This document shows positions 34,352-61,794 of a stretch of DNA of 64,000 nucleotides, piece by piece (position 1 is the first letter of the stretch; the number at the start of each line of letters is the position of its first letter). A model generated the notes under the pieces. That model had not been told where the DNA came from. It made no database searches and saw only the letters and a program-made list of their open reading frames with translations. This DNA comes from Desulfuromonadales bacterium (GTDB taxonomy: Bacteria; Desulfobacterota; Desulfuromonadia; Desulfuromonadales; Syntrophotaleaceae). The translations under genes and the position numbers were made by a program. The stretch lies in NCBI GenBank assembly GCA_013619105.1, contig JABXKU010000001.1, positions 90,996-154,995 of the forward strand. Reading direction: 5' to 3'.

Positions 34352-34447
34352 TTTTCTGCTTTGAGTATTTTTGACAGAATTCATGGGACAGAGGAGTTGT
34401 GGTAAAATGATACCTAACTATTTACCGCTCAGGGAAAGGATCGAACA

Positions 34448-35185
34448 ATGAGACGCAAGATATTTTTGTTTGTCGGAATCTTGGCTTTGTTGGTTGGTAC
34501 CATGTCCGCCTGTACCTCTTACAAAAGCCAGGAAGTTGCCTTTCGGCCGCCTACCGGTTATGGCAATATGCAATTGGTGGCCGGGGCACAGGTCGCTGCT
34601 CAATCTTACGCCGATAGTTCGGCTGCGAAACAGGCTTTCGGTTTCGACATTCGTTCTGCCGGCCTTCTCCCAATACAGGTGATTATAGACAATGGTGGTG
34701 ACAGTGCTCTGAATGTAGTACCCGAGCAGACCTTTCTGGTCGATGCCGAGGGTAATTTGTGGAGTCTGCTCGACAGCCGGACCGCTTATCAGCGAGTGGA
34801 GAAGAGTTCTGAATACGCTCGTATCGCCAAGGGCAGTGGTAAGGGGTCGCTGTTAGGTGGTGCCAGCGGTGCCGCCATCGGTGCGGCTATCGGTATTCTG
34901 ACCGGTGAGAACGTGGCCTCGGCGGCATTCAAAGGCGCTGCCGTTGGTGCAGCGGGTGGTGCAGTTGTTGGTGGCACGCAAGCCAATGCCTCAGGTGATG
35001 CCAGTCGCCAGATCGGTCGCGATTTGGCAACCAAGCAATTGGTCAATCAGGCGGTGCAACCTGGCAGTTTGGCTAACGGATTCTTATTCTTCCCCGGGGA
35101 AGCTCCATCCGCTTCGCAATTGCGATTGCAAGTGAGAGAAACCCAGAGCGGTTTGGTGCATAAGGTGATGATCCCTCTGCCTTGA
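34448..35185 (+). CDS. glycine-zipper lipoprotein
   Basis: 245 residues. Lipoprotein signal peptide with a hydrophobic stretch (5-17) and Cys22 in VGTMSAC, so the mature protein should be lipidated. A glycine-zipper segment at about 137-180 (LLGGASGAAIGAAIGILTG, AAVGAAGGAVVGG) could insert into or span a membrane, as in Pcp/SlyB- and YMGG-type proteins. The rest is beta-rich with no enzyme motif. Function unknown; an envelope role is inferred. Ribosome site AAAGGA seven bases upstream; perfect terminator downstream, so it is probably monocistronic. Confidence 0.8.
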   Translation: MRRKIFLFVGILALLVGTMSACTSYKSQEVAFRPPTGYGNMQLVAGAQVAAQSYADSSAAKQAFGFDIRSAGLLPIQVIIDNGGDSALNVVPEQTFLVDAEGNLWSLLDSRTAYQRVEKSSEYARIAKGSGKGSLLGGASGAAIGAAIGILTGENVASAAFKGAAVGAAGGAVVGGTQANASGDASRQIGRDLATKQLVNQAVQPGSLANGFLFFPGEAPSASQLRLQVRETQSGLVHKVMIPLP

Positions 35186-51462: not shown

Positions 51463-51638
51463 GTTTTCATCCGGAAACGGCCCTTTCCCCCAATCTCGGC
51501 GTCAATCCGCGAGTTTGCGTGTGCGGCGTAAACAACTACGCCTCCGTGCAAGCACTTGATTTCCTTGACCTAGGGGAAAATTCCTCGTTTCCCATATGAA
51601 AACTGCGCTGTGTCCATCCATAGTTTCCGGATGGACAC
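51463..51638 (-). mobile_element. MITE-like element, copy 2 (inverted, intact)
   Basis: 176-base element on the opposite strand to copy 1. Ends GTTTTCATCCGGAAAC (51463-51478) and GTTTCCGGATGGACAC (51623-51638) are inverted repeats matching at 14 of 16 positions. It is flanked by a perfect 6-bp direct repeat, TAGCTT at 51457-51462 and 51639-51644, a clear target-site duplication. A 10-bp hairpin GTGTCCATCC/GGATGGACAC sits at one end. No transposase. It ends 23 bases before the waaA start and supplies a misleading in-frame ATG at 51596. Confidence 0.92.
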
Positions 51639-51661
51639 TAGCTTGGACCGTGAGAGGTGCT

Positions 51662-52957
51662 GTGTACCTGCTCTATAACATATTGCTTTTACTGTTGGCG
51701 TTGCCCGTTCTTGCCGGTCATTTGCTCCATGGCCTGGTACGGGGTCGTCGTCGGCAAGGGGTGCGTGAGCGCTTCGGTTACTTTGCACCGGAGCGACTAG
51801 CTCCCCTGTCCGGCAAAAAGACGGTGTGGGTGCATGCCGTCTCGGTAGGCGAAACCCAGGCTGCAGCGCCCCTGATAAAAGCTCTTAAGAGCCGCTACCC
51901 AGATTGGGCTGTGGTTATGACAAATGTGACCGAAACCGGTCACCGGGTGGCTAAGGGCATTTCCGAGGTCGATTTGTGCCTCTATTTTCCCTATGACTTT
52001 TCCTGGACTGTACGCCGGGTATTTGCCCAGCTGAAGCCGGCCCTGGTGGTGGTGGTTGAAACGGAAATCTGGCCGAACTTTATGCGTGTCGCGCACCGTT
52101 CTGGCGTGCCGTCTGTGTTGGTTAATGGTCGCATCTCCGATCGCTCCTTCCCACGTTATCGTCGGCTAAGCTTTTTTATCAAGCCGGTCTTGCGGCAGTT
52201 TTCTATATTTTGCATGCAGTCCGCTGTTGATGCTCAGCGCATCGAGGCTATGGGGGCACCTGCGGATCGGATAGAAGTAACTCGTAATCTCAAATTCGAT
52301 ATGCAGACCGGGGGCCTTAACGAACAAAATTCCGCACCAATCCGGCGAAAGTACGGCATTCCGGCTAGCGGTAAGGTGCTTGTTGCTGGTAGCACCCATA
52401 TCGGAGAAGAAGAACAGGTGGTCGATGTTTATCGGCGGTTGCTCAAGAGTCATCCAGATCTTTGCTTGATTTTGGTGCCTCGCCATCCCGATCGTTGCCG
52501 GCTCGTAGGCGAGCTGTTGTCTTCCCGTGACGTACTTTATTCGCTACGCAGTGAGATAAAAGGTATCCCCATCACCATGGCCCCTGGGGCCGTCTTGCTA
52601 GTCGATACAGTGGGGGAGCTACTTCAGTTCTATGCGGTTGCTGAGCTGATATTTGTCGGGGGCAGCCTGGTGCCCGTCGGTGGCCATAATATCCTCGAAG
52701 CGGCTCTATTGAAAAAACCGGTTCTTTTTGGACCGCACATGCATAATTTTAAGGAAATCAGTCGTTTGTTGGTTCAGGCTGGCGGCGGACTAGTCATTTC
52801 CGAGGGCGAAGAATTTTACCGGGAGGCAAACAACCTATTATCCGATTCTCAACGCTGTCAGGATATGGGCGCGAAGGGCTATGCTTTGTTGCAGGATAAT
52901 CGGGGAGCGACCAAACGCACCCTGCAAGCCATTGAACGGATAATGGAGGCCGGATGA
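51662..52957 (+). CDS. waaA: 3-deoxy-D-manno-octulosonic acid transferase (Kdo transferase)
   Basis: Adds Kdo from CMP-Kdo to lipid IVA; inner-membrane-associated GT30 enzyme. About 431 residues: N-terminal anchor helix (YLLYNILLLLLALPVLAGHLL), then FGYFAPE, TVWVHAVSVGETQAAAPLIKAL with the catalytic Glu, VVETEIWPNFMRVAHRSGVPSVLVNGRISDRS, and C-terminal FVGGSLVPVGGHNILEAALLKKPVLFGPHMHNFKEI. I choose GTG 51662 because GAGAGG precedes it by four bases and the length matches E. coli (425). GTG 51650 is possible; ATG 51596 lies inside the MITE and adds residues encoded by the insertion. Confidence 0.95.
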   Translation: MYLLYNILLLLLALPVLAGHLLHGLVRGRRRQGVRERFGYFAPERLAPLSGKKTVWVHAVSVGETQAAAPLIKALKSRYPDWAVVMTNVTETGHRVAKGISEVDLCLYFPYDFSWTVRRVFAQLKPALVVVVETEIWPNFMRVAHRSGVPSVLVNGRISDRSFPRYRRLSFFIKPVLRQFSIFCMQSAVDAQRIEAMGAPADRIEVTRNLKFDMQTGGLNEQNSAPIRRKYGIPASGKVLVAGSTHIGEEEQVVDVYRRLLKSHPDLCLILVPRHPDRCRLVGELLSSRDVLYSLRSEIKGIPITMAPGAVLLVDTVGELLQFYAVAELIFVGGSLVPVGGHNILEAALLKKPVLFGPHMHNFKEISRLLVQAGGGLVISEGEEFYREANNLLSDSQRCQDMGAKGYALLQDNRGATKRTLQAIERIMEAG

Positions 52958-55312: not shown

Positions 55313-56361
55313 TGCGGGTCTTGATTGTCAAAATCAGTGCTTTGGGAGACGTCATTCACGCCTTGCCAACGCTAGCCTTGTTGAAAAGTACCGATCCTTC
55401 AATAGAAATCGATTGGTTGGTTGAAGAGGGCTTTGCGCCACTACTCGAAGGGCATTCTTCGCTACGTCGGATTCACCGTCTCGGACTTAAACGCTGGCGG
55501 CGCCAAGGTTGGCTAGCTGCGCTCAAGGGAGTGAAAAAAACTATCGCCGAACTTCGTCGAGAAAATTACGACCTGGTCCTTGATCTACAAGGGAACAGCA
55601 AGAGCGGTCTCTTTACTTTACTTTCTGGCGGTGCCCTCCGTTATGGTTTTGATCGCGATGGGGTGCGTGAATGGCCCAATCTGTTTGCGACTAATCGCAA
55701 GGTGTCTTTAGGCGCTGACAGCCATCATATCAGTGATCGTTCGCTGGCCGTTTCCCGGGCGGCCTTTCCGGGAGACAGAGAAATAGCTCTGGCTGGTCCG
55801 ATGGAGATACAACCCCAAGCTGCCGTCTCAGTAAAGGAACAGTTGGCGGCACACCATATTGATCAGCAGCCACTGCTCGTTTTACAATATGGTACCACCT
55901 GGACAACCAAATTATGGCCCCTCGACTGCTGGCAGGATCTGGTAGTAAAATTATGCGATCAAGAGAATCTGCGGCCCGTGTTGATCTGGGGGAACGAAGC
56001 AGAACTCGAAGCCTGCAAAGAAATTTCTCATGCCAGCAACGGTAGGGCACTGATCTGGCCACGGGGCACCTTGCCGGAATTGGCCGCCTTGCTACAGCGA
56101 GCCGACCTGGTTGTCGGTGGTGATACCGGTCCGATTCATATCGCGGCGGCGGTTGGTACTTCAACCGTTTCTCTGTTTCGGGTCACAGACGCCACCCGCA
56201 ATGGGCCGCGGGGTGATCAGCATATTCGTCTTCAATCGCCGTTGGATTGTGCACCTTGTCTACGCAAGACCTGTTCGCGAGACGAGGAGTGTGGCCACAG
56301 CATTTCTGTGAATCAGGTCCTCACAGCCATTCGTTCACTTCTTCCTGGTGAAAACCTATGA
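55312..56361 (+). CDS. waaC: lipopolysaccharide heptosyltransferase I
   Basis: GT9 enzyme adding the first heptose to Kdo. 349 residues: MRVLIVKISALGDVIHALPTLALLK (typical WaaC start), VEEGFAPLLEGH, DLVLDLQGNSKSGLF, YGTTWTTKLWPLDCWQDLV, and VVGGDTGPIHIAAAVGTSTVSLFRVTDATRNGPRGD. The ATG overlaps the last base of waaF (TGATG) with GGAGAG five bases upstream. Together with waaA and waaF it predicts a Kdo-heptose-heptose inner core. Confidence 0.94.
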   Translation: MRVLIVKISALGDVIHALPTLALLKSTDPSIEIDWLVEEGFAPLLEGHSSLRRIHRLGLKRWRRQGWLAALKGVKKTIAELRRENYDLVLDLQGNSKSGLFTLLSGGALRYGFDRDGVREWPNLFATNRKVSLGADSHHISDRSLAVSRAAFPGDREIALAGPMEIQPQAAVSVKEQLAAHHIDQQPLLVLQYGTTWTTKLWPLDCWQDLVVKLCDQENLRPVLIWGNEAELEACKEISHASNGRALIWPRGTLPELAALLQRADLVVGGDTGPIHIAAAVGTSTVSLFRVTDATRNGPRGDQHIRLQSPLDCAPCLRKTCSRDEECGHSISVNQVLTAIRSLLPGENL

Positions 56362-57197
56362 ATGGTCTGCTTGAACAAAATGGCCTGACCGTAGTTGCTG
56401 ATGTTGCCCCTCTGCTGGCCAAAGCCGGACTAATTACTTTTGACGATTTCATGAACTTCAGTGGCGGTACTCTTATTTGCCGAAAGAGGGGCCGCTCGGT
56501 GGTCAGTTTTGAGATTGGAGAGCGGACGTTCTATCTCAAGCGTAACCGCATTCATAGGGTCGAGTTCTGGAAGACCTTATCCCGTTTCCGCTTGCCTCCG
56601 CGCAGCGCTCGTCAGGAATGGCAGAGTATTTTGGCGGTGCGCGAGGCCGGGATCCCTACTGTGCCTCCCATGGCCATGGGCGAACAGTTGGTCTGCGGGA
56701 TTGAAAGGGCATCGTTCACGTTGACCGAAGCCCTTTACGATGCCGAGCCCTTAGATCAGGTTATTCCGCGGGAGTTCCCCGGAGAGTTAACCTCACTTCA
56801 GCATCGGGAAAAACGAACCCTTATCCGACGCGTGGCGGAAATTGCCCATCAGCTACATAGCAGTGGTATGTACCATCAGGATCTTTATCTTGGGCATTTC
56901 TTATTGGGACGCGAAGATAACCTCTATCTGATCGACCTGCAGCGGGTGGTGTGCTGTAAAAAGGTGCCGCGCCGCTACCGAGTCAAGGACCTGGGACAGC
57001 TGGCCTTTTCGGCACAGGATACAGGAGGACTCACCCGTAGCGACCAGATGAGATTTTTTCTCACCTACTTGGAGTGCCCACACTTGGGGGCAAAAGATAA
57101 GGTGTTGCTGCGCTGTGTGCTGGCTAAGAGTCGCCGGATTGCCCGTCACACGGTCAAATTACTCGAGCGACGTCGGCGCCGGGGGGAGATATCATGA
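56358..57197 (+). CDS. WaaP/InaA-family LPS core heptose kinase
   Basis: Protein-kinase-like enzyme of 279 residues. Candidate ATP lysine K61 in TFYLKRNRI, glutamate E87 in ARQEWQSI, catalytic D175 in GMYHQDLYLGHFLL and metal-binding D193 in LYLIDLQR. The HxDL...HFLL pattern is that of E. coli WaaP, which phosphorylates heptose I, and it follows waaF-waaC with a four-base overlap. A basic tail (RRRRRG) may hold it at the membrane. Confidence 0.86.
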   Translation: MNGLLEQNGLTVVADVAPLLAKAGLITFDDFMNFSGGTLICRKRGRSVVSFEIGERTFYLKRNRIHRVEFWKTLSRFRLPPRSARQEWQSILAVREAGIPTVPPMAMGEQLVCGIERASFTLTEALYDAEPLDQVIPREFPGELTSLQHREKRTLIRRVAEIAHQLHSSGMYHQDLYLGHFLLGREDNLYLIDLQRVVCCKKVPRRYRVKDLGQLAFSAQDTGGLTRSDQMRFFLTYLECPHLGAKDKVLLRCVLAKSRRIARHTVKLLERRRRRGEIS

Positions 57198-59272: not shown

Positions 59273-60277
59273 ATGAAAATAGCTCTTGTTAATAAAACGT
59301 TTTCCCTGTCCCATGGTGGCGCAGAGCGTTTTTCTGTAAATTTAGCCGCGGCCTTGGTTCGTGGGGGGCATGAAGTGCATGCTTTTGCCCACCAAGCCGA
59401 GGATCTTCCCGACCAAGTTACTCTTCACCGTGTCTCGATTGTCAAAAAGCCAGCTTTCCGGCGTGTACTTTCGCCCTGGCGTTGGCTCAACTATCTGTTC
59501 AATCCGGCTCATTTGGCTAATATTTTTTTGGAAAGCCGCATCTACCGACCTGTCAACTTCCGGCGCATCGTCACTAATTCCAAGCTGTGTAAAAGACATG
59601 CGCAAGAATACTACGGCGTCCCTCCAGAGCGCATCGCCGTCATCTACAACGGCGTGGACCACCAGACGTTCAATCCCCAAGCCGCCACTCGCTATCGCAG
59701 CGAGGTTCGTCAAGAACTCGGCCTTAGCCAAGACGATCCGGTTATTCTTTTTGTTGCAAGCAATTGGAAACGCAAGGGGTTGTCCGTGCTGTTGCGAGCG
59801 CTTGCTATTCTTGGTAGAAGGGGGCGCACTTGTCAGGTTCTTGTTGTAGGGCGCGGAAAGTCTACACCCTTTAGAAAACTGGTGCGCCAATTGGGGTTGG
59901 ATGGGTGTGTACACTTTACGGGGGCTACCACCCAGGTGGAGCGGTATTATGGAGCGGGTGATTTTCTGGTGTTGCCCACCCTGTACGATCCTTTTGCTAA
60001 CGTCTGTCTCGAGGCCATGGCCTGTGGCTTGCCGGTAATCACCACGACTGCCAACGGGGCGGCAGAGATCATCCGACCAGGGGAGAACGGCTTTGTGCAA
60101 CATCAACCGACCGACCCTCAAGAGCTAGCTCTGCTGCTGGAGCCATTACTTGACGTGGAGCGCAGAAAAAGCATGGGCCAAATAGCGCGGGAAACTTCCC
60201 TTGAGTTCACTACTGAAAGGAATTTGGCGGAAACGTTGAAGTTGTGTCAGCAAGTCCTGGAGGAAAAGGCGCAATGA
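59273..60277 (+). CDS. family 4 glycosyltransferase, WaaG-like
   Basis: 334 residues. MKIALVNKTFSLSHGGAERFSVNLAAAL at the N-terminus; IVTNSKLCKRHAQEYYGVPPERIAVIYNGVD and LFVASNWKRKGLSVLLRAL match WaaG-type heptose glucosyltransferases; the EX7E region reads CLEAMACGLPVITTTANGAAEII. It is about 40 residues shorter than WaaG, the loss falling around residues 65-95 in the N-terminal domain, so specificity may differ or the gene may be trimmed. Follows the previous transferase by 20 bases. Confidence 0.83.
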   Translation: MKIALVNKTFSLSHGGAERFSVNLAAALVRGGHEVHAFAHQAEDLPDQVTLHRVSIVKKPAFRRVLSPWRWLNYLFNPAHLANIFLESRIYRPVNFRRIVTNSKLCKRHAQEYYGVPPERIAVIYNGVDHQTFNPQAATRYRSEVRQELGLSQDDPVILFVASNWKRKGLSVLLRALAILGRRGRTCQVLVVGRGKSTPFRKLVRQLGLDGCVHFTGATTQVERYYGAGDFLVLPTLYDPFANVCLEAMACGLPVITTTANGAAEIIRPGENGFVQHQPTDPQELALLLEPLLDVERRKSMGQIARETSLEFTTERNLAETLKLCQQVLEEKAQ

Positions 60278-61794
60278 AGCACGCAAATGTTTCTTCCAGG
60301 GGAGTCGAGTGGCACTTTGTTTCTACTGAGGGGCGTGCTCTGCTGGCTAAATTGGACGGTAAGGATCTTTCGGGTGAGGTTGTCAAGGCTATCCCTAAGC
60401 GACGTGTAGTAAGGACGCCGGGAATTTTTGCCAAAGAAGTCAGGTATCGAGGCTGGGCTGTACTATTAAAAACCCTGGTCGGTGGGACTGCCTGCCGGGA
60501 AGGACGAATGTCTCTGGCCCTCGCCAAAGTAGGTATTGCTGTGCCTGAGGTCCTCGCCTTCGGGGCGGAAAAACAAGGCGGTTTGCTTCGCCGGGATTTG
60601 CTGCTGACTCGAGAGGAGCCCAGAGGTAAAAGTCTGCTTGATGTTATGCTTCAGGATTATCCGGCATGGCCATTCAGGGAAAAGTGTTGTTTGGTTGAAC
60701 AATTTGGAGCTTTCATGAAAGGGCTTCACGTTTCTGGCGTGTCGCATGGCGACCTACATATCGGGAATATTTTGTGGGTACCCGATAGGCAGAAGGGGCA
60801 CCGGTTTGTCCTTCTTGACACCGATCGGGTTACCCTGAAAAACCACCCGCTGTCGAGACGACAAAGAATTGCCAACCTTGCTTTACTTTTGAGCAATATG
60901 TGGACGTTGGTCAGTCGAAACCAGAGGTTTCGGTTTTTTCGGGCTTATGGAAGATGTCTTGACCCGAAAGGCCGTAGGTTCGTTGCGGAATTGGAGGCCA
61001 AGGCCCTTAATCACTCGAACAGAATCTGGCGGAAGAAGGCACAGAGGTGTCTATACAATAATCGTCGGTTTGGTAAAGAGTGCCGAAAGGGTTTTACAAT
61101 ATTGTATAGCAAAAGAGCCGGCATCGAGGAACTTCTCGATGGATTGCTGGCTGACCCTGACCGTTTGCTGGAAGAAGGCCAGATATTCAAAGCAGGCAAT
61201 ACGGTAAGGGCTGCCAGAATTGAGCTGAACGGCAAGAGCTATTTTCTCAAACGCTTCAATTGTAAGGGCTTGGGTTACAGTATTAAAAACGCTTTCCGAC
61301 GCTCTCGGGCGGTTCGATCGTGGCTTGTTTCCTGGGGGTTTCGCCATAGAAGTTTGCCGGTTCCCGAACCCCTTATCTGCCTTGAAGAACGCCGCTTGCG
61401 GCTACTTGGGCGCTCCTATCTTCTATTCGAATTTGTCGAGCAAACAGAATCTCTTGCTAAGGTCTGGCCGCGGCTTGATGTTTGTGTAAGAAAGGGACTT
61501 CTGGTACGGATGGCTCTGATGCTCGGCCGGATGCATTTGTTCGGTGGGCTGCACGGTGACCTCAAGTGGAGCAATATTTTGGTGCGTGGCCAAAAGGGTG
61601 AAGAACTTTATTTGATCGATCTAGATGGTAGTAAAATCGTTGGTCCGGGAAAGCACCGAGCCAAGCGCAAAGATTTGGAGCGTTTTCTGGTGGACCTTAC
61701 AAGAGTTCAGCTGGGAGATAGCGATAGGGCTTTTTTTCTCAAATGTTGGGAGAGATTGAGTTCTAGAGCCGCGATGGTTTGGAAAAAAGCATGA
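60274..61794 (+). CDS. tandem double LPS-kinase-like protein (two InaA/WaaP-type domains)
   Basis: 506 residues holding two complete kinase-like domains in one frame. Domain 1 (about 1-265): candidate lysine K54 in FAKEVRYRGW, catalytic loop SHGDLHIGNILW (H158, D160, N164) and metal motif LLDTDR (D182). Domain 2 (about 270-506): K326 in YFLKRFNCKG, LHGDLKWSNILV (H427, D429, N434) and LIDLDG (D449). Both keep the residues needed for activity. The domains are clearly diverged, so the duplication or fusion is not recent. Probably phosphorylates two sites of the LPS core. Start ATG 60274 overlaps the upstream stop, with GGAGGAAAAGG ahead of it. Confidence 0.83.
   Translation: MKHANVSSRGVEWHFVSTEGRALLAKLDGKDLSGEVVKAIPKRRVVRTPGIFAKEVRYRGWAVLLKTLVGGTACREGRMSLALAKVGIAVPEVLAFGAEKQGGLLRRDLLLTREEPRGKSLLDVMLQDYPAWPFREKCCLVEQFGAFMKGLHVSGVSHGDLHIGNILWVPDRQKGHRFVLLDTDRVTLKNHPLSRRQRIANLALLLSNMWTLVSRNQRFRFFRAYGRCLDPKGRRFVAELEAKALNHSNRIWRKKAQRCLYNNRRFGKECRKGFTILYSKRAGIEELLDGLLADPDRLLEEGQIFKAGNTVRAARIELNGKSYFLKRFNCKGLGYSIKNAFRRSRAVRSWLVSWGFRHRSLPVPEPLICLEERRLRLLGRSYLLFEFVEQTESLAKVWPRLDVCVRKGLLVRMALMLGRMHLFGGLHGDLKWSNILVRGQKGEELYLIDLDGSKIVGPGKHRAKRKDLERFLVDLTRVQLGDSDRAFFLKCWERLSSRAAMVWKKA

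What the first reader, a model, noticed from the sequence alone, without database searches (positions are those of the whole stretch)
60274..61794. Two complete LPS-kinase domains fused in one protein
Both halves keep the lysine, the HGDL...N catalytic loop and the metal-binding Asp, yet they are strongly diverged. LPS core kinases of the WaaP/InaA type are normally single-domain. A single-domain WaaP-like kinase is also present 3 kb upstream, so the cluster has three kinase domains. This points to several core phosphorylation sites or a relay.
Basis: seen in the sequence. Interest (0 to 1): 0.6.

Follow-up and report, generated by a model that had tools for sequence, protein, structure and literature searches.

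The report
Tandem LPS-core kinase in one protein
One gene really does encode two sugar-kinase domains back to back, but this is an old and widespread design in the sugar-coat (lipopolysaccharide) gene cluster of this bacterial phylum, most likely an enzyme that adds phosphates at two places on the inner core, and its second domain belongs to a kinase type that has dropped a normally important glutamate.

Summary
ORF 60274-61794 (506 aa) holds two Kdo/WaaP-type kinase domains (PF06293; E 1.9e-18 and 7e-19 when scanned apart), 28% identical to each other. AlphaFold2 gives two full kinase folds (pLDDT 94, pTM 0.89). It is not a sequencing error: the fused form recurs in at least 15 families of the phylum, including a single-contig genome, and both halves are under purifying selection (dN/dS about 0.11 each). 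So it is not exceptional. It is a conserved kinase family in an LPS-core cluster (kdtA-lpxK-waaF-waaC-kinase-GTs-double kinase). In one relative it is fused to GT4 and a heptosyltransferase in one 1278-aa ORF. I think it phosphorylates two inner-core positions. In sister lineages the N half has lost its catalytic residues while the C half stays invariant; those genomes carry a second C-type kinase. This favours two separable activities over an obligatory relay. All 57 C-type domains scored lack the alphaC glutamate but have an invariant beta4 glutamate, a possible relocated lysine partner. The substrate is inferred, not shown. Pseudomonas PA5006 may be the nearest named relative, but its sequence could not be obtained.

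The parts
60274..61794 (+). double LPS-core kinase, 506 aa (N kinase + C kinase)
60361..61008 (+). N-terminal kinase domain (aa ~30-245), WaaP-like; K54, E76, HGD 158-160, N165, D182/D184
   Evidence: Pfam 67.1 bits; best solved structure WaaP 6dfl Z 19.4; residues
60964..61128 (+). junction: long helix 231-260 and start of C-type N-extension (aa ~231-285)
   Evidence: AlphaFold2 secondary structure; purifying selection continues through it, dN/dS 0.17
61129..61773 (+). C-terminal kinase domain (aa ~286-500), C-type; K326, S349 in place of alphaC Glu, E371 in beta4, HGD 427-429, N434, D449/D451
   Evidence: Pfam 68.5 bits; Bud32/PRPK Z 19.8; invariance
59273..60277 (+). GT4 glycosyltransferase; stop overlaps the kinase start (ATGA); a GT4 is fused to the double kinase in G461
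56358..57197 (+). single-domain WaaP-like kinase (sister subfamily of WaaP)
   Evidence: RfaP equivalog 148 bits, below cut-off 170; tree
51596..52957 (+). kdtA/waaA Kdo transferase
   Evidence: PF04413
52954..54027 (+). lpxK
   Evidence: PF02606
54284..55312 (+). heptosyltransferase (waaF-like, GT9)
   Evidence: PF01075
55309..56361 (+). heptosyltransferase (waaC-like, GT9); start codon not settled
   Evidence: PF01075
57194..58135 (+). GT2 glycosyltransferase
   Evidence: PF00535
58269..59252 (+). GT4-type glycosyltransferase
   Evidence: PF13692
61779..63389 (+). PMT_2 membrane glycosyltransferase; start overlaps the kinase end
   Evidence: PF13231

Best explanation
A cytoplasmic two-site LPS inner-core kinase. 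While the nascent core is built by the waaF/waaC heptosyltransferases and the neighbouring GT4 enzymes, the WaaP-like N domain and the distinct C-type domain each transfer an ATP gamma-phosphate to a different hydroxyl of the inner core (heptose or Kdo). The upstream single WaaP-like kinase takes a further position. Fusion keeps the two kinases in fixed stoichiometry next to one substrate. Shown: two predicted intact kinase folds with catalytic residues, conservation and purifying selection of both halves, clustering with and fusion to core glycosyltransferases. Inferred: that both halves are catalytically active, that the substrate is LPS core sugar, and that the sites differ.
For: Both halves exceed the PF06293 gathering score and are confidently predicted as kinase folds, matching WaaP (N, Z 19.4) and Bud32/PRPK (C, Z 19.8). 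Catalytic D160/N165/D182 are kept in 22 of 22 active-type N halves, and K/HGD/N/DxD in 37 of 37 C halves. dN/dS is about 0.11 in each half. The kdtA-lpxK-waaF-waaC-kinase-GT-double-kinase order is conserved. One ORF in G461 = GT4+N+C+GT9 heptosyltransferase, and one in G075 = N+C+GT2. One C-type domain in all 23 genomes with an active-type N, versus two or three in 5 of 5 genomes with dead N and two in both well-sampled genomes without N (G017, G110): a C-type paralogue may have taken over the N activity. By analogy, P. aeruginosa uses several kinases (waaP, wapP, wapQ) in one core cluster (PMC6147952).
Against: No substrate or activity data were found for any member. The C half lacks the alphaC Glu, whose loss cripples P. 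aeruginosa WaaP (E78A, PMC6147952). The N/C-type exchange pattern may reflect only one or two evolutionary events. C-type counts rest mainly on the fetched neighbourhoods plus genome-wide protein searches. Pseudokinase forms show that the N half can be kept for a non-catalytic role.
Confidence: 0.52

Rival explanations
1. Only the C domain is the essential core kinase; the N domain mainly positions substrate or regulates it, as in pseudokinase-kinase tandems. Its catalytic residues in this lineage are ancestral or serve a minor activity.
For: The C half's catalytic residues are invariant everywhere. The N half has lost its catalytic residues in G006, G010, G011, G032 and G059 yet is still recognisable (blastp up to 35% over 189 aa) and the degenerate doubles of G006 and G011 are 57% identical overall. 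Foldseek's second hit is the TYK2 pseudokinase-kinase tandem, though without good superposition.
Against: In the window lineage and in all clade B doubles aligned the N half keeps its catalytic residues (22 of 22), and against G008 its dN/dS equals that of the C half. Dead N coincides with an extra C-type kinase gene.
Confidence: 0.22
2. Sequential action on one residue: one domain makes the monophosphate, the other extends it to a pyrophosphate (a relay in the reader's sense).
For: Two kinase active sites in one chain. P. aeruginosa core is highly phosphorylated and WaaP action appears to be required before later phosphorylations (PMC6147952).
Against: An obligatory relay predicts joint loss of both active sites; instead the N half decays alone while the C half is kept. 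C-type kinases exist without N.
Confidence: 0.12
3. The substrate is not LPS core: a Bud32/RIO-like protein kinase, or a kinase of another glycan made by the same cluster.
For: The C half's best solved structural relative is Bud32/PRPK. Neither half reaches the RfaP or KdkA equivalog cut-off.
Against: Conserved place in the core cluster and fusion to a GT9 heptosyltransferase, GT4 and GT2.
Confidence: 0.1
4. Sequencing or assembly error joining two genes.
For: None found.
Against: The same fusion at 42-72% identity in independent genomes, one of them a single contig (G003), and across at least 15 families. No relative examined has N and C as separate genes.
Confidence: 0.01

Closest known systems
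WaaP/RfaP LPS core heptose(I) kinase (P. aeruginosa WaaP, PDB 6dfl)
   Same: N half has the same fold (Z 19.4), the beta3 Lys / alphaC Glu / HxD / Asp set, and the same kind of gene neighbourhood
   Different: single domain; WaaP has His where both halves here have the metal-binding Asn (HRDxYICHF against HGDLHIGNI); N half scores 57.5 bits against the RfaP cut-off of 170
KdkA Kdo kinase (NCBIfam PRK01723)
   Same: best NCBIfam hit of the C half (57.5 bits, E 9.9e-16)
   Different: below the cut-off of 142 bits; C half lacks the alphaC Glu and carries an invariant beta4 Glu
P. aeruginosa PA5006 (operon PA5006-PA5012 with waaP, wapP, wapQ)
   Same: kinase-like protein with residues reported up to 493, encoded in the waa core operon, self-interacting (PMC8707732); clade B doubles of the window's order sit near WaaP-like singles and near singles whose motifs I read from memory as WapP- and WapQ-like
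   Different: sequence not obtainable here, so two-domain architecture and homology are a lead, not a test; function there is also unassigned
Bud32/PRPK (KEOPS kinase)
   Same: closest solved fold to the C half (Z 19.8)
   Different: acts in tRNA modification; no sequence-family match above cut-off

Membership tests
PF06293 Kdo/WaaP kinase family (Pfam) | score above gathering threshold 21.3 bits | tested here: met
   N half 67.1, C half 68.5 bits
PF06293 Kdo/WaaP kinase family (Pfam) | protein-kinase fold with beta3 Lys, HxD, metal-binding Asn/His, DFG-type Asp | tested here: met
WaaP-type active site (as in 6dfl) | alphaC Glu pairing with the Lys (K51-E78 in WaaP) | tested here: not met
   present in the N half (E76) but not in the C half: 0 of 57 C-type domains scored; S/T/V/A instead. 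Not a criterion of the Pfam family itself
WaaP/RfaP heptose(I) kinase (NF011703 equivalog) | score above equivalog cut-off 170 bits | tested here: not met
   N 57.5, C 35.4 bits; upstream single 148.3 bits
WaaP/RfaP heptose(I) kinase (NF011703 equivalog) | groups with E. coli WaaP in a tree | tested here: not met
   N, C and the window's single kinase all fall outside the 26-row WaaP clade, SH-aLRT support 99
KdkA Kdo kinase (NF002475 equivalog) | score above equivalog cut-off 142 bits | tested here: not met
   C half 57.5, N half 39.5 bits
PA5006-type double kinase of Pseudomonas | two kinase domains homologous to N and C here | not testable with these tools
   no Pseudomonas chromosome could be searched; only length, operon and self-interaction from PMC8707732
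LPS core phosphorylation enzyme | phosphotransfer to core LPS shown | not testable with these tools
   needs assay

The most novel reading that the evidence does not exclude
The C-type domain is a kinase lineage in which the lysine-pairing glutamate has moved from helix alphaC to strand beta4 (E371, 57 of 57), and the fused N kinase is an exchangeable module: in some lineages it decays to a pseudokinase while a duplicated C-type kinase takes over its phosphorylation site.
Probability: 0.35. Interest if true: 0.55.

Novelty: new variant of a known kind. Interest (0 to 1): 0.4.

Why it matters
To my knowledge, which enzymes place the several phosphates of the LPS inner core is only partly known even in Pseudomonas. 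This family gives a natural series (active-N+C, dead-N+C, C1+C2, GT-kinase-kinase-GT) in which each kinase module could be tied to one phosphate. It also offers a kinase type without the alphaC glutamate to study.

Tried and rejected
Sequencing-error joining: rejected (fused in at least 15 families). Separate N and C genes in relatives: none found; G017 and G110, which looked split, carry two C-type genes, not N plus C. Independent origin of the N halves of window-type and clade B doubles: the free tree separates them, but holding them together gives a likelihood 2.95 higher and AU p 0.56, so one fusion origin is allowed, not proven. Getting Pseudomonas PA5006: plasmid collection, viral contigs and genome search centred on an E. 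coli locus gave nothing or were not possible; DeLucia 2011 is not held. Close relatives in plasmids: only weak partial hits. The structural list for the pseudokinase form is filled by the C half, so its N half was not tested there. Measuring the K326-E371 distance: model coordinates not available. Literature searches found no description of a two-domain LPS kinase in the held library, which is not proof of absence.

Full report
WHAT IS THERE. The 506-aa ORF at 60274-61794 is real and complete. Its ATG overlaps the stop of the upstream GT4 gene, and its start agrees with the closest homologue. Each half alone reaches PF06293 (Kdo/WaaP kinase) with E 1.9e-18 and 7e-19. AlphaFold2 on an alignment of 37 relatives gives mean pLDDT 94.1 and pTM 0.89, with two full kinase folds joined by a long helix. 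The N half matches solved WaaP best (Z 19.4, 228 residues, rmsd 3.8) and the C half Bud32/PRPK best (Z 19.8, 208 residues, rmsd 3.4). The halves share 28% identity over 171 aa.

NOT AN ARTEFACT, NOT RARE. Full-length fused homologues occur at 42-72% identity in G008, G003 (single contig), G023, G075 and G064. A second, more distant type ('clade B', about 25-30%) is found across the order, and further doubles in families f31, f61, f64, f65, f70, f89, f104 and f110 of the phylum. Against G008 both halves have dN/dS of about 0.11 and the junction 0.17 (dS is high, so the ratio is rough). No relative examined encodes N and C as separate genes.

ANATOMY OF THE TWO HALVES. In 22 of 22 active-type N halves the catalytic Asp, the Asn and the DFG-type Asp are kept. 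All C halves and C-type single kinases in the alignment (37 of 37) keep Lys, HGD, Asn and both Asp of DxD. The alphaC glutamate is present in 52 of 56 N domains but in none of 57 C domains, where it is Ser, Thr, Val, Ala or similar. The C domains instead have an invariant Glu in beta4 (E371, motif CxEER; 57 of 57). The model's secondary structure places K326 in beta3, S349 in helix alphaC and E371 in beta4, so this is not an alignment slip. In P. aeruginosa WaaP the alphaC Glu contacts the ATP Lys, and E78A made cells 128-fold more sensitive to EDTA (PMC6147952). That the beta4 Glu replaces it is inference.

EVOLUTION. C halves and C-type singles form one clade (SH-aLRT 97; that branch also holds one long odd row). 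The N halves may share one origin: holding them together is 2.95 lnL better, AU p 0.56. In G006, G010, G011, G032 and G059 the region before the C domain is still recognisable but has lost the catalytic Asp, the Asn and the DFG-type Asp, a pseudokinase (in G032 and G059 only short remnants remain, and in G032 the match is weak). In G017 and G110 the N half is absent and two C-type genes lie in tandem. All 23 genomes with an active-type N have exactly one C-type domain in the loci examined; all 5 with a dead N have two or three. G063 and G012 show one C-type gene without N, but one is at a contig end and the other is an incomplete genome. G002 has a C2-type gene and a C half cut by a contig end, so its N state is unknown. 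The events behind this pattern are probably few, so no probability is attached.

CONTEXT. The cluster kdtA-lpxK-waaF-waaC-kinase-GT2-GT4-GT4-double kinase-PMT is an LPS core cluster, and its order is conserved in relatives. G461 encodes GT4 + N + C + GT9 heptosyltransferase in one 1278-aa ORF, and G075 encodes N + C + GT2 in 845 aa. These fusions tie the double kinase to core assembly more strongly than position alone.

MECHANISM. The best reading is a two-site inner-core kinase (0.52). A catalytic C half with a helper N half (0.22) and sequential pyrophosphate formation (0.12) remain open. An obligatory relay is disfavoured because the N half decays alone. All substrate statements are inference from neighbourhood, fusions and family.

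COMPARISON. Both halves belong to PF06293. Neither is WaaP or KdkA by the NCBIfam equivalog cut-offs or, for WaaP, by the tree. The upstream single kinase is a sister subfamily of WaaP (148 bits against a cut-off of 170). This genome has only four PF06293 hits and no canonical WaaP. P. aeruginosa PA5006, reported with residues up to 493, kinase-like, self-interacting and in the operon with waaP, wapP and wapQ (PMC8707732), is a likely named relative, but its sequence could not be tested here.

VERDICT. A correct observation of a conserved, little-described enzyme type. The fusion itself is ordinary for this phylum. The unexpected parts are the C-type kinase without the alphaC glutamate and the replacement pattern of the N half.

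Noticed in passing
L104:3866-7699 (G461): One 1278-aa ORF fuses a GT4 glycosyltransferase, both kinase domains and a GT9 heptosyltransferase, a whole stretch of core assembly in one chain.
   Followed up: partly
L054:12338-14872 (G075): The double kinase is fused to a GT2 glycosyltransferase (845 aa).
   Followed up: partly
L060:6964-8451, L058:9398-10801, L056:12793-14559: Sister lineages carry a degenerate pseudokinase N half in front of an intact C-type kinase.
   Followed up: yes
L101:1015-2847 (G533): A WaaP-like domain (NHKDFYLCHLL) is fused in front of a C-type kinase, possibly an independent fusion with a different N partner.
   Followed up: no
window 56358-57197: The single kinase is not in the canonical WaaP clade; the genome seems to have no canonical WaaP, while G010 has both types.
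   Followed up: partly
L036 (G000 C101, about 34407-34814): A 745-aa ORF elsewhere in the genome ends in a Kdo-type kinase domain; in the 687 aa read, the first ~500 residues have no Pfam match. ORFs of similar length with a Kdo match occur in G089, G088 and G010.
   Followed up: no
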